Positions 30,396 to 36,392 of a DNA stretch of 64,000 bases are shown in pieces. The notes below the pieces were generated by a model. It ran no database searches. It saw nothing but the letters and a program-made list of their open reading frames with translations, and was not told the DNA's origin. The stretch comes from Thermococcus sp. 4557. GTDB lineage: Archaea; Methanobacteriota_B; Thermococci; Thermococcales; Thermococcaceae. Position numbers and translations under genes: made by a program. Numbering within the stretch: position 1 is the first letter of the stretch; each line of letters begins with the position of its first letter. The stretch spans positions 620,001 through 684,000 of the forward strand of contig NC_015865.1 in NCBI RefSeq assembly GCF_000221185.1, written 5' to 3'.

Positions 30396-31209
30396 GAACC
30401 GTCTCACCGAGCACGCCCCTTTTCTTCAGCTCATGGGAAACCTCAAGGGCCGGCGGCAGCTTCACCCCGAGCCTTCTTAGGGTGTCCGCCTCCTCCGCGA
30501 CCTCCTCAGGGGTCCCCTGGAGGACTATCTCCCCGCGGTCCATGACCATAACCCTGTCGGCGTAGCGGAGAATGTAGTCGGTATGGTGCTCCACGAGGAC
30601 GACGGTTATACCATGCTCCCTGTTGAGGAGCGACACAAGGCCCAGAACCTCCCTCCTTCCCACGGGGTCAAGCTGGCTCGTCGGCTCGTCGAGGACTATT
30701 ATTGACGGCTCCATCGCAAGAACAGCCGCGATAGCGAGCCTCTGCTGCTGACCGCCGCTCAGGTTCGGCGGGAACTCCTTCTCAAGACCCCTCAGGCCGG
30801 TGACCTCAAGGGCCCACCGGAGCCTTCTGAGTATCTCATTCCGCTCAAGCCCCAGGTTTTCCAGACCGAAGGCTATCTCCTCCTCCACCGTCATGTTGAA
30901 AAGCTGGCTCTCGGGGTTCTGAAGGACGAGGCCGACGACCGTGGAAAGCGTTGGGACGGGGGTTTCCTTCGTGTTGTACTCCTCCCCCGTCCTTGGGTCT
31001 TTAACAATCACGTCGCCCTCAAACTCCCCCTTTATCGAGTTCGGGATTATCCCGTTGAGGGTGAGGCAGAGGGTGGACTTTCCGCTCCCGCTCGGGCCGA
31101 TTATCCCGAGGAGCTCGCCCCTCTTTACCGTGAAGCTGACGTCCTTCAGGGAATAGCTCTCCGCCCGACGGTATTTGAAGCGGAGGTCCTCAACACGGAT
31201 TACGTTCAT
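30349..31209 (-). CDS. Energy-coupling factor type ABC ATPase
   Basis: ATP-binding subunit of the CbiO/EcfA type, 286 residues. Walker A GPSGSGKST, Q-loop LQNPESQLF (the Q-loop form typical of ECF ATPases), signature LSGGQQQRLAIAA, Walker B IIVLDEPTSQLDP and switch VEHH are all present. A longer frame upstream runs antisense to nothing coding and is discarded because the ATG at 31209 begins the conserved MNVIRVEDLRFKYRR and overlaps the trkH stop as ATGA. No S or T component lies nearby, so the partner membrane subunits are encoded elsewhere. Confidence 0.9.
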   Translation of the reverse strand: MNVIRVEDLRFKYRRAESYSLKDVSFTVKRGELLGIIGPSGSGKSTLCLTLNGIIPNSIKGEFEGDVIVKDPRTGEEYNTKETPVPTLSTVVGLVLQNPESQLFNMTVEEEIAFGLENLGLERNEILRRLRWALEVTGLRGLEKEFPPNLSGGQQQRLAIAAVLAMEPSIIVLDEPTSQLDPVGRREVLGLVSLLNREHGITVVLVEHHTDYILRYADRVMVMDRGEIVLQGTPEEVAEEADTLRRLGVKLPPALEVSHELKKRGVLGETVLTPEELLSRIGRPSR

Positions 31210-32687
31210 CTGCCCCTCACCACCCTCGGGACGAGGAAGAACGTGCTTATAATGAAGACTAGGGTGGAGAATATCTCGAGCCTCCCTATCCACATGTGGA
31301 GGATGAGGAGAATCTTCATATCCACGGGCATGTGGGTCGAGGTTATCCCCACGCTCAGCCCGACGTTGCCCTGTGCGGAGGCCACCTCGAAGAAGGAATC
31401 CACGAGGCTGGTTCCCATGCGGAGCATCGTGTAAACGGTTCCGATGAGGAGCAGGGCGATGTAGGTTATTGTGAAGCTCATAACCTCCTGAATATCCTCC
31501 TCGGTGAACAGATAGTTGCCGACCTTGCGCTTTATGACGGCTCCCCTGGGCAGTATGGCCTGCTGAATCGTCCATTTGAGGCTCTCGTACATCAGCGTGA
31601 CGCGGATGAGCTTTATACCTCCCGCAGTACTTCCAGCGCCACCGCCTATGACCATGAGGATTCCGATTATGAACTTGCCGAGCTCGGGGTACCTGCTGAG
31701 ATCGGCTATGCCGAAGCCCGTACACGTTATTGCAGAGACGGAGTGGAAAACCGACTGACGGAGGGATTCACCCACGGTGTCGCCCACCTGGATGAGACTG
31801 TAGGCAGTTATCGCAACCGCTGGGACGAGGAACACGAACATATACCCTACCTGGATGTCCTCAAAGAAGGGCTTCAGGTGCCTGCTGACGAACATCCTGT
31901 AGTGAACCGTGAAGTTGACGGCACCCATTATCATCAGGAATATCGTGACCGCCTCGATGGACGTGCTGTTGAAGTAGCCGATGCTGAGGTCGTGGGTGCT
32001 CATACCGCCCGTTCCCAGGCCGGTCATCGCGTGGGTGACGGCATCGAAGAGGGGCATGCCGTTGATGTAGTACAGGTAAATGCCGACAACGGTCAGGACG
32101 GAATATATCTGGAAGATGACCTTGGACGTGTTAACCAGGTTTGGGAGGATTCTCTCGCTCCTGGCCTCGGCCCGGTAAAGCCTCGCTGCAGCCACACCGG
32201 GGCGTATGAGAACGGTGAGGGCGACGAGAACTATACCGATTCCGCCGAGCCACTGCATCCAGGCACGCCAGAACAGGAGGATGTGGGGATAGCTCTCCAG
32301 ATTGGTCATCATGGTGAGGCCCGTGCCCGTCCACGCGCTCATGCTCTCGAAGTAGGAGTCTATGAACGACATCTTGGCTATGGCCATGAAGGGCACGACA
32401 CTTATGGCGGAGGCAAAGAGCCAGGTGAACGCGGCCGAAACCATGGCCTGCCTGAGGTTGACGTCCTCGATTTTACCCATGTGCCTTGCCAGCCAGGCAC
32501 CGAAGAGCACGGAGAATGTGCCTGGGAGGGCAAAGTAGATGACGTAGTTAATCTCCTCCGGATAAAACCAGGCCAGCAATACAGGGATGAGGTAGGCGAT
32601 GCCCACGCCCTGAAGGATTGAGCCGATGAGGTTCTTCACCACGAACAGATCGTCCGAGATGTTGATGTGCTTGCCGAGTTCCAGCAT
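31206..32687 (-). CDS. trkH: TrkH family potassium uptake protein
   Basis: Membrane subunit of a Trk/Ktr-type K+ (or Na+) transporter, 493 residues from the ATG at 32687, which follows GGTGGG. About ten to twelve hydrophobic segments are visible, with pore-loop glycine filters such as TGTGLTMM, TGLGTGGM, TCTGFGI and QGNVGLSVG, one in each repeat. A TATA-like CCTTTTATTTGG lies upstream. No TrkA regulatory subunit is adjacent; instead an ECF ATPase gene overlaps its stop by four bases. Confidence 0.92.
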   Translation of the reverse strand: MLELGKHINISDDLFVVKNLIGSILQGVGIAYLIPVLLAWFYPEEINYVIYFALPGTFSVLFGAWLARHMGKIEDVNLRQAMVSAAFTWLFASAISVVPFMAIAKMSFIDSYFESMSAWTGTGLTMMTNLESYPHILLFWRAWMQWLGGIGIVLVALTVLIRPGVAAARLYRAEARSERILPNLVNTSKVIFQIYSVLTVVGIYLYYINGMPLFDAVTHAMTGLGTGGMSTHDLSIGYFNSTSIEAVTIFLMIMGAVNFTVHYRMFVSRHLKPFFEDIQVGYMFVFLVPAVAITAYSLIQVGDTVGESLRQSVFHSVSAITCTGFGIADLSRYPELGKFIIGILMVIGGGAGSTAGGIKLIRVTLMYESLKWTIQQAILPRGAVIKRKVGNYLFTEEDIQEVMSFTITYIALLLIGTVYTMLRMGTSLVDSFFEVASAQGNVGLSVGITSTHMPVDMKILLILHMWIGRLEIFSTLVFIISTFFLVPRVVRGR

Positions 32688-32779
32688 AGGCCCACCGTAG
32701 GGGTAGGGTTCGCACCAAATAAAAGGTTTTCCCGTGGAAAGGTTTAAGGGGCACGTGCTCACCCCAGTTATGGTGATAA

Positions 32780-33670
<891 letters not shown>

Positions 33671-33897: not shown

Positions 33898-33900
33898 TGG

Positions 33901-33983
33901 CGCCGGGGCAGGGATTTGAACCCTGGTGGGCAGAGCCCACTGGATCTCGAGTCCAGCGCCTTCCCAGGCTAGGCTACCCCGGC
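33901..33983 (-). tRNA. tRNA-Ser (CGA)
   Basis: Read on the minus strand, the acceptor arms GCCGGGG and CCCCGGC pair fully, with discriminator G. The anticodon arm CTGGA-CTCGAGA-TCCAG gives anticodon CGA, the long variable arm TGGGCTCTGCCCA marks a class II tRNA, and the T arm is CAGGG-TTCAAAT-CCCTG. The 3' CCA is encoded (33898-33900). A minus-strand TATA (GATTTATAAAAC, about 34005-34016) lies ~28 bases before the 5' end. Confidence 0.96.
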
Positions 33984-34016: not shown

Positions 34017-34113
34017 CTTTCCGCGAAAAATTTATTAAAGAAATGTTATTAAAATCCTGTTGAAAAGGTTTAAATTGACCGGCGCCCTAGTATAATATGA
34101 AGGAGGTGACAGC

Positions 34114-35289
34114 ATGGTCGGTATTCTTGTGCAGGAAGTTATGACCGACAGGTTCCAGAAAATCGACATCGCCGCCCCGCTTTCTGAGGCGATTGGAATT
34201 TTCGAGAAGGAAGACCCCGACCTTATTCTGGTCTTCGACGGAAACCTGTACAAGGGAGTCCTGACACAGGACCTTATTATACGCTCCCACCTCAAGTGGG
34301 ACCCAACCAAGGCCAAGGTTAAGGATGTGTACAAAACCGCCCCGGTTATCAAGCCGGATGAAGACCTTAGCAAGGCCGCCAAGCTCATGATGGAGGTTGA
34401 TCTCCGCTCCCTCCCCGTTGGAGAGAGCAAGGCTGAAATCATTGGAGTTATAAGCGACATAGAGCTCCTCAAAAGGGTCGCCGAGGGAGAGTTCGGAAAG
34501 AAGAAAACGGAGGAGTTCATGACCAAGGACGTCATAACACTGAAGCCGGACGATACCGTTGCCAAGGCCCTTGCAACGATGCGCGACCACGCGATATCGA
34601 GGATTCCGATAGTAAACGAGACCGGAAAGCTCGAGGGGCTCGTAACCCTCCACGACCTCATCATAAGGTTCATCAAGCCCCGCTTCAAGTCCCAGTACGG
34701 TGAGGTGGCCGGTGAGAAGATTCCCCCGTTCAGCATGCAGCTCCGCGATGTCATGATAAGGGGCGTCATAACCGCCAGGCCGGAGGCCAGCGTCAGGGAG
34801 GCCGTGGCGACGATGATGGAGAACGACATCGACGGCCTCGTCCTCGTCGATGAGGGCAACAGGGTCGTGGGCATCCTGACCGTGAAGGACCTGCTCCTGC
34901 CCATATCCAGGATGGTCGAGAAGGAGGCCCGCTTCTACCTCCAGCTGGGAGGTGACGCTGAGATACTCAGCGACTTCACGAGGGAGCGCATCATAGACGA
35001 CGTCAAACGCTTCGTCGACGGCTACGAGGACCTCCTGGGCCAGGAGGGCATAATCTACCTCTACATAAGGCGCTTCAACGAGAAGTTCCGCGGCGTGCAC
35101 CTGTACCAGGCCAGGATGCGCGTTGTTACCGACAGGGGAGTGTTCATAGCCACCGGTGAAACCTGGGGTGCAATACAGGCAGTTCACGACGCCCTGAGGG
35201 CCATCGAGAGGCAGCTGCTCCAGAAGGCCGAGCTGGAGCACGACACCCGCTACTACAAGAGGTTCATAGAAAAATTGGGACTGGAGTGA
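34114..35289 (+). CDS. Four-CBS protein with C-terminal HPF/S30AE-like domain
   Basis: A 391-residue cytosolic fusion. Four CBS repeats occupy residues ~8-60, ~70-122, ~132-190 and ~213-268 (examples VQEVMTDRFQKIDI, TKDVITLKPDDTVAKALATM, VMIRGVITARPEASV). The last ~115 residues look like the ribosome hibernation factor fold: an initial helix (RERIIDDVKRFVDGYEDLL), strands YLYIRRFNE, VHLYQARMRVV and GVFIATGE, and a closing helix AIQAVHDALRAIERQLLQKA, echoing HPF/YfiA endings. CBS pairs usually bind adenine nucleotides, so I infer energy-sensed ribosome inactivation. CBS proteins acting as archaeal ribosome inhibitors have been reported; identity with them is not established here. TATA-like signal and AGGAGGTGA precede the ATG. 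Confidence 0.8.
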   Translation: MVGILVQEVMTDRFQKIDIAAPLSEAIGIFEKEDPDLILVFDGNLYKGVLTQDLIIRSHLKWDPTKAKVKDVYKTAPVIKPDEDLSKAAKLMMEVDLRSLPVGESKAEIIGVISDIELLKRVAEGEFGKKKTEEFMTKDVITLKPDDTVAKALATMRDHAISRIPIVNETGKLEGLVTLHDLIIRFIKPRFKSQYGEVAGEKIPPFSMQLRDVMIRGVITARPEASVREAVATMMENDIDGLVLVDEGNRVVGILTVKDLLLPISRMVEKEARFYLQLGGDAEILSDFTRERIIDDVKRFVDGYEDLLGQEGIIYLYIRRFNEKFRGVHLYQARMRVVTDRGVFIATGETWGAIQAVHDALRAIERQLLQKAELEHDTRYYKRFIEKLGLE

Positions 35290-35291
35290 TT

Positions 35292-36392
35292 TCACTCCAT
35301 TTTAAATTCTCTTTCGAGGATTTTCAGCTGCTGCTTCTCCAGTGATGCGGGATCAACGATAAGCGCCATGGTGCCTCCCTGGAGCAGCACCCTGTCTTTT
35401 ATGTTCAGAAGGAACTTAAACGCACTCTCAAACCCGTTCTCAACAATTAGATACTCCACCGCTTCCACGACAACCACCGTGTAGCCCCTGGCCAGGGCCC
35501 CGGCCATGAGATCCGTCAGGATGTCTATTTTGGTCGGGCTTATGGCGTACACCCTGGGTGAGTCCGAAAGCTCTCCCTCGGATACCCTCGTCATCCAGAA
35601 CACAACGGCATTCGGATGCAGCACGTCTTCAAGCGAATTGACGTCTCTCCGGGTTATCAGAATCATATTGGGTATCCTCTCAAACTCCCCCAGAGCCCTC
35701 CTCGCCGCGGCCCTGCTGGGATACATGAAAGCCCCACGGGGCACTTCGTGACCGTCGTCCGGGGCGGGGAAAACAAACGGCCAGAGAACGAAGCTCAGTG
35801 CGCCGATGGCCATCATAATCCTGAAGAGGGTGCCCAGCCAGAAACCGTAGGGGATGAACCACGGCCACGCGGCGGTTACTGGATACGTGGCGTTCAGAAA
35901 ACCCAGGAGAACCATCCCAGTGGGGAGGAGCATCTGACCCCATCTCCTGGAGATTACATGCCTGTAGAGCAGAAGACCCATGTAAATGTAGCCAGCAACG
36001 TAAACCATCATGGGGCCGAAGCTCTTCAGGAAGAAGCTTACCTCCACCGTGCTCACGTTGGTGATAACTATCCAGAGGTACGCCAGCACGCCCACCCCCA
36101 GGGCGAGGACGGAGTTCCTGAGGGAGGGGGTTGAAGGGTTCAGGTGTTCCGCGGCCAGTATCAGGAGAACCCCCTGGAACGCGGTGTTTATCATATCAAG
36201 CACGAAGGACACCGAAGATACAAGGGAAAGGCCCAGGGGTTCAAGGAGGAGCCTCTCCGGGTCGATGGCGGCCAGGAGGAAAGCAAACATCATCAGCATC
36301 CAGCCTCCGCTCTCCTCCCTCCGTGTTTTGTACGCCGCCACCCCAAACAGGACCCATCTCGAGATAAGGTTGAGGAAGTATGCCCAGCTCAA
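35292..36392 (-). CDS. Seven-helix membrane protein with C-terminal DUF835 domain
   Basis: A 366-residue protein: about seven hydrophobic segments in residues 1-215, then a soluble domain (~235-366) with the DUF835 pattern (MILITRRDVNSLEDV, AVVFWMTRVSEGE, TVVVVEAVEYLIVENGFESAFKFLL, GTMALIVDPASLE). DUF835 resembles the catalytically dead RecA-like domains used in archaeal signalling, and the 7-helix part may be sensory; both are inference. It lies between two convergent/tandem genes, ending two bases after the CBS-HPF gene and starting just inside the next gene's end. Confidence 0.8.
   Translation of the reverse strand: MSWAYFLNLISRWVLFGVAAYKTRREESGGWMLMMFAFLLAAIDPERLLLEPLGLSLVSSVSFVLDMINTAFQGVLLILAAEHLNPSTPSLRNSVLALGVGVLAYLWIVITNVSTVEVSFFLKSFGPMMVYVAGYIYMGLLLYRHVISRRWGQMLLPTGMVLLGFLNATYPVTAAWPWFIPYGFWLGTLFRIMMAIGALSFVLWPFVFPAPDDGHEVPRGAFMYPSRAAARRALGEFERIPNMILITRRDVNSLEDVLHPNAVVFWMTRVSEGELSDSPRVYAISPTKIDILTDLMAGALARGYTVVVVEAVEYLIVENGFESAFKFLLNIKDRVLLQGGTMALIVDPASLEKQQLKILEREFKME

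What the first reader, a model, noticed from the sequence alone, without database searches (positions are those of the whole stretch)
34114..35289. Four CBS domains fused to a ribosome-hibernation-like domain
The C-terminal ~115 residues carry the helix-strand-strand-strand-helix order and the AIDAL..ERQL-type end of HPF/YfiA hibernation factors, behind four CBS repeats that normally sense adenine nucleotides. This suggests a factor that shuts ribosomes down when energy falls. Archaeal CBS-containing ribosome inhibitors and a Pyrococcus 30S dimerisation factor have been described recently; I cannot tell whether this is their orthologue.
Basis: partly seen in the sequence, partly recalled or inferred. 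Interest (0 to 1): 0.6.

Follow-up and report, generated by a model that had tools for sequence, protein, structure and literature searches.

The report
Archaeal ribosome hibernation factor HibA

Summary
[quoted passage not shown] An AlphaFold2 model of residues 266-391 (pLDDT 87.7) matches HPF/YfiA/RaiA/PSRP1 structures as its 32 best PDB hits. It is the orthologue of Pyrococcus abyssi HibA, described in Nature Communications in April 2026 (PMC13324472), with 84.4% identity over 390 residues and no gaps. All HibA landmarks tested by sequence are present: the peptidyl-transferase loop, both archaeal insertions, and CBS3/CBS4 nucleotide motifs. The gene is single-copy and present in essentially every well-sequenced relative in its family. 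It is not aRDF, the Pyrococcus 30S-dimer factor, nor Dri. HibA does silence and protect ribosomes and its CBS module binds AMP, but published reconstitutions saw no clear effect of AMP or ATP on ribosome binding. Known kind, known family; low novelty.

The parts
34114..35289 (+). hibA coding sequence, 391 aa plus stop
   Evidence: phmmer to PDB 9sr9_H 718 bits, E 1.6e-215; 84.4% identity over 390 aa
34114..34920 (+). CBS module, residues 1-269, four CBS domains (82.2% identical to P. abyssi HibA)
   Evidence: Pfam PF00571, four stretches; individual hits at window 34318-34482, 34513-34665, 34744-34896; identity
34681..34734 (+). PTC loop, residues 190-207 (RFKSQYGEVAGEKIPPFS; 16 of 18 identical to P. 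abyssi)
   Evidence: most of it (190-203) predicted disordered, pLDDT < 50; published position and role
34636..34656 (+). CBS3 nucleotide motif GLVTLHD, residues 175-181
   Evidence: G175 and D181 invariant in A1
34870..34890 (+). CBS4 nucleotide motif GILTVKD, residues 253-259
   Evidence: G253, T256, K258, D259 invariant in A1
34921..35286 (+). HPF/RaiA-like domain, residues 270-391 (89.3% identical to P. abyssi HibA)
   Evidence: AF2 models, Foldseek PDB ranks 1-32 all HPF family, hhalign to E. coli RaiA/HPF, identity
34960..34968 (+). position of the first archaeal insertion, residues 283-285 (EIL here, SAL in P. abyssi)
   Evidence: insertion as defined in PMC13324472
35083..35103 (+). 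second archaeal insertion, residues 324-330, KFRGVHL, identical to P. abyssi
34102..34109 (+). Shine-Dalgarno GGAGGTGA
   Evidence: sequence; conserved upstream alignment
34065..34075 (+). conserved AAGGTTTAAAT element, probable BRE/TATA of the proximal promoter (inferred)
   Evidence: conserved in all Thermococcaceae sequences of the alignment, a few with one or two changes
34031..34054 (+). conserved imperfect inverted repeat TTTATTAA-N7-TTATTAAAA upstream of the promoter; possible regulator site or second TATA
   Evidence: 1 match in the window, 0 expected

Best explanation
The gene is the Thermococcus orthologue of HibA, an archaeal ribosome hibernation factor. [quoted passage not shown] The N-terminal four-CBS module reaches the 50S subunit and occupies vacant tRNA sites (peptidyl-transferase centre, P/E region near uL5, or L1 stalk), with a loop at residues 190-207 entering the peptidyl-transferase centre. 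This holds the 70S together, blocks mRNA and tRNA and protects idle ribosomes until growth resumes. Shown here: gene, domain order, fold, orthology, landmark residues. Shown by others for an 84%-identical protein and a T. barophilus mutant: ribosome binding, translation inhibition, ribosome preservation, AMP binding. Inferred: that this copy does the same, and that AMP/ATP levels tune it.
For: phmmer to the HibA chain in PDB 9sr9 and seven sister entries, 718 bits over residues 1-390 with no gap; 84.4% identity overall, 89.3% in the HPF domain, 16/18 in the PTC loop. Foldseek of the C-terminal model: ranks 1-32 all HPF/YfiA/RaiA/PSRP1, E from 2.9e-7. CBS module model matches ribosome-bound CBS proteins SriA/SriB, SriD and Dri as well as AMPK gamma. 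Universal single-copy in well-assembled Thermococcaceae genomes. Function and structures from PMC13324472.
Against: No experiment on this protein itself. Published pulldowns link orthologues to GINS23, the GAN nuclease and RadB (PMC3820547), so hibernation may not be its only role. PF02482 does not recognise the domain, and sequence-only comparison with bacterial HPF is weak.
Confidence: 0.97

Rival explanations
1. An energy-gated switch: AMP or ATP bound at the CBS3/CBS4 interface decides whether HibA enters or leaves the ribosome, so ribosomes are shut down when the cell's energy charge falls.
For: Canonical G-x-x-T-x-x-D motifs in CBS3 and CBS4, invariant across relatives; published ITC with AMP preferred, AMP/ATP seen between CBS3 and CBS4.
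Against: No nucleotide in native complexes; AMP did not change the states and ATP added only one weak extra state in reconstitution; authors report no clear effect on ribosome binding.
Confidence: 0.25
2. A replication/recombination regulator: the CBS protein mainly acts on GINS23, the GAN nuclease and RadB at the replication fork, with ribosome binding secondary.
For: Pulldowns in P. abyssi and T. kodakarensis of orthologues Pab0961/TK1186, and RadA/RadB contact of Haloferax HVO_2384 as personal communication (PMC3820547).
Against: HibA has iBAQ values like ribosomal proteins in the 70S fraction and occupies most hibernating-like 70S particles. The 2013 study did not recognise the C-terminal domain at all. 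In this genome the nearest GINS-family hit is about 298 kb from hibA.
Confidence: 0.05
3. An orthologue of aRDF (PF0560), the P. furiosus 30S-dimer factor, or of Dri.
For: All are archaeal ribosome inactivators; Dri also carries CBS modules.
Against: aRDF has 15 helices and 4 strands, no CBS, and is restricted to Pyrococcus. Dri is a 655-aa protein with two CBS modules and no HPF domain, matched here at only 34.5 bits.
Confidence: 0.01

Closest known systems
HibA of Pyrococcus abyssi (Pab0961, UniProt Q9UYR4; PDB 9SR9-9SRF, 9T7H)
   Same: Same length to one residue, same domain order, PTC loop, insertions and CBS3/CBS4 motifs; 84.4% identity.
   Different: Ordinary sequence drift only; first insertion EIL instead of SAL.
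HibA of Thermococcus barophilus (F0LKU5) and TK1186 of T. kodakarensis
   Same: Thermococcaceae orthologues; deletion in T. barophilus shows the physiological role.
   Different: No difference identified; sequences not compared by name here, though the family sample is 75-98% identical in the C-terminal domain.
CBS-HPF proteins outside Thermococcales (PDB 9l96 chain a; HVO_2384 of Haloferax volcanii)
   Same: Four CBS plus HPF-like C-terminal domain; 9l96 chain a scores 128 bits full length and 48 bits with the C-terminal profile.
   Different: Much more divergent.
Bacterial HPF/RaiA (YfiA) and chloroplast PSRP1
   Same: Same fold, top 32 structural hits, weak but real profile match to E. coli RaiA/HPF.
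   Different: No CBS module; lack the archaeal insertions; below Pfam detection.
Dri of Pyrobaculum calidifontis and SriA-SriD of Methanosarcina acetivorans
   Same: CBS modules that bind ribosomes.
   Different: No HPF domain; Dri has two CBS modules.
aRDF (PF0560) of Pyrococcus furiosus
   Same: Thermococcales ribosome inactivator.
   Different: Unrelated mostly helical protein causing 30S-30S dimers.

Membership tests
HibA | N-terminal module of four CBS domains | tested here: met
   Pfam CBS, four stretches, E 4.6e-44
[quoted passage not shown]
   Model pLDDT 87.7, pTM 0.78; PDB ranks 1-32 all HPF family
HibA | PTC loop, residues 190-207, in the CBS module | tested here: met
   16 of 18 residues identical to P. 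abyssi, low pLDDT as expected of a free loop
HibA | Two archaeal insertions in the HPF domain (283-285 and 324-330) | tested here: met
   Same length at both places; KFRGVHL identical
HibA | Adenine-nucleotide site between CBS3 and CBS4 | tested here: inconclusive
   Sequence motifs present, key residues invariant; binding itself not testable here
HibA | Binds 30S and 70S, inhibits translation, preserves 70S in stationary phase | not testable with these tools
   Shown for the P. abyssi protein and a T. barophilus deletion
aRDF | Mostly helical fold (15 helices, 4 strands) | tested here: not met
   Model is CBS plus HPF alpha/beta; aRDF description
Dri | Two CBS modules and no HPF domain | tested here: not met
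   One CBS module plus HPF domain; 34.5 bits to Dri 9e6q
Bacterial HPF/RaiA (Pfam PF02482) | Match above the PF02482 cut-off | tested here: not met
   No match in this genome at E <= 10; 4 of 19 C-terminal relatives match weakly, best E 0.02. Shares the fold and works like it, but lies outside the Pfam model's reach

The most novel reading that the evidence does not exclude
HibA is shared between two jobs. In growing cells it is held by replication/recombination proteins (GINS23, GAN, RadB), and an AMP-dependent change in its CBS module releases it to silence ribosomes, coupling replication and translation to energy state. The authors of the HibA paper raise a sequestering partner as a possibility; nothing here excludes or shows it.
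Probability: 0.08. Interest if true: 0.6.

Novelty: already known. Interest (0 to 1): 0.15.

Why it matters
It confirms that a reader of raw sequence can recognise an HPF domain that Pfam misses, and it places the gene in a family whose structure and role are now published. It also bears on two statements in the literature that rest on weak sequence similarity: that P. furiosus lacks an HPF homologue (PMC11724365), and that Pab0961 has only CBS domains (PMC3820547). The open question it touches is whether adenine nucleotides control hibernation through the CBS module.

Tried and rejected
Pfam and NCBIfam scans gave only CBS and unrelated CBS-protein names, plus weak chance hits in the C-terminal part (Hrs_helical, DUF7075), rejected because the fold is unambiguous. 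PF02482 search of the genome: nothing. aRDF and Dri rejected on domain content. Phage collection: no relative. GINS gene near hibA, as reported for P. abyssi: not so in this genome, the nearest GINS-family hit is about 298 kb away. Phr heat-shock regulator site: the hsp20 promoter of this genome carries a perfect Phr-type site, the hibA promoter does not. It has a related-looking conserved repeat, but a relaxed palindrome pattern is no commoner in the genome than its reversed control (4 against 4), so Phr control was neither confirmed nor excluded. The opposite-strand ORF 34087-35295 (-) is treated as an antisense shadow of a conserved gene, not a gene.

Full report
What is there. The ORF at 34114-35289 (+) is a complete 391-codon gene with a strong Shine-Dalgarno 4 bases before its ATG. 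Pfam finds four CBS stretches and no recognised family in the last 120 residues. The gene lies between a divergent tRNA-Ser (33898-33983, -) and a convergent DUF835 gene (35292-36392, -), so it is most likely a single-gene transcription unit.

Is the C-terminal part HPF-like? Yes. I aligned 19 relatives from the same family and a sister family and predicted the structure. The full-length model gives strand 274-280, helix 287-303, strands 312-325, 328-339 and 342-351, and helix 353-376. The isolated domain model has pLDDT 87.7 and pTM 0.78. Foldseek against the PDB returns only HPF, YfiA, RaiA and chloroplast PSRP1 structures in ranks 1-32, E from 2.9e-7. Sequence evidence alone is weak: hhalign with E. 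coli RaiA plus HPF gives 61.7% probability over the last strands and helix, PF02482 finds nothing in the genome even at E 10, and only 4 of 19 relatives match PF02482, best E 0.02.

What is it? phmmer against solved structures returns one overwhelming match: PDB 9sr9 chain H and seven sister entries, labelled 'Dehydrogenase', 718 bits over residues 1-390 without a gap. These are the HibA structures of Pyrococcus abyssi, published in April 2026 (PMC13324472). Identity is 84.4% overall, 82.2% in the CBS module, 89.3% in the HPF domain, and 16 of 18 in the PTC loop. Both archaeal insertions lie at the same residue numbers, and the second (KFRGVHL) is identical. CBS3 and CBS4 carry canonical nucleotide motifs, GLVTLHD and GILTVKD, whose key residues are invariant among the relatives, in agreement with the published AMP/ATP position between CBS3 and CBS4.

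Distribution. A full-length match is found once in nearly every well-assembled genome of the genus. The C-terminal domain is found in every other genus of the family that was searched and, at about 30% identity, in three genomes of one sister family. Six genus genomes and one other family genome without a C-terminal match are all incomplete assemblies (53-85% complete). No relative is found in phage records. It is a core, apparently vertically inherited gene of this family.

How it works. From the published work on the 84%-identical protein: the C-terminal domain sits in the 30S mRNA/tRNA channel, the CBS module occupies tRNA sites on the 50S in three poses, translation is inhibited in vitro, and deletion in T. 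barophilus doubles the lag after stationary phase and lowers 70S by about 60%. I infer the same for this copy. The energy-sensing part is open: the CBS module binds AMP best, but native complexes held no nucleotide and AMP or ATP had no clear effect on ribosome binding.

aRDF (PF0560) is a different, mostly helical protein found only in Pyrococcus. Dri has two CBS modules and no HPF domain, and matches here only through CBS. Stand-alone CBS ribosome factors of Methanosarcina (SriA-SriD) match the CBS module structurally. The protein of PDB 9l96 chain a has the same two-part architecture and matches over both parts, and Haloferax HVO_2384 is described the same way in PMC12607858.

Loose ends. 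Orthologues were pulled down with GINS23, the GAN nuclease and RadB (PMC3820547), which leaves room for a second role. The HibA paper says that Phr controls hibA, citing a 2003 paper. In this genome the hsp20 promoter has a perfect Phr-type site and hibA has only a related-looking, conserved inverted repeat, so that claim deserves a direct binding test.

Verdict. Observation confirmed, identity settled, mechanism published for a close orthologue, novelty low.

Noticed in passing
window 34031-34054: Inverted repeat TTTATTAA-N7-TTATTAAAA upstream of hibA, with conserved arms and a variable 6-7 base spacer in most Thermococcaceae genera examined; its spacing matches the Phr boxes of the hsp20 promoter (TTTA, TGGTAA, AAAA), but its centre does not match well.
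   Followed up: partly
window 34065-34075: AAGGTTTAAAT is conserved in the hibA upstream regions of the whole family; together with the upstream CGAAAAATTTATTAA this could mean two tandem promoters.
   Followed up: no
L042 and L071 (G048): One multi-contig assembly, G048, holds two hibA copies on separate contigs (about 91% and 87% identical to the window protein); either mixed species or a duplication.
   Followed up: no
L098 / G000:C1:1867399-1867422: Perfect Phr-type palindrome TTTAGTTACTACTGGTAACCAAAA upstream of hsp20, the only place in the genome matching that pattern (up to 3 mismatches, either strand).
   Followed up: partly
PDB 9sr9 chain H: The deposited HibA chain still bears the name 'Dehydrogenase', probably inherited from the IMP dehydrogenase misannotation of CBS proteins.
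   Followed up: no
window 31206-33670: The TrkH gene on the - strand (31206-32801) and the M24 peptidase gene on the + strand (32783-33670) overlap by 19 bases at their listed starts; the true start codon of at least one is probably further inside.
   Followed up: no
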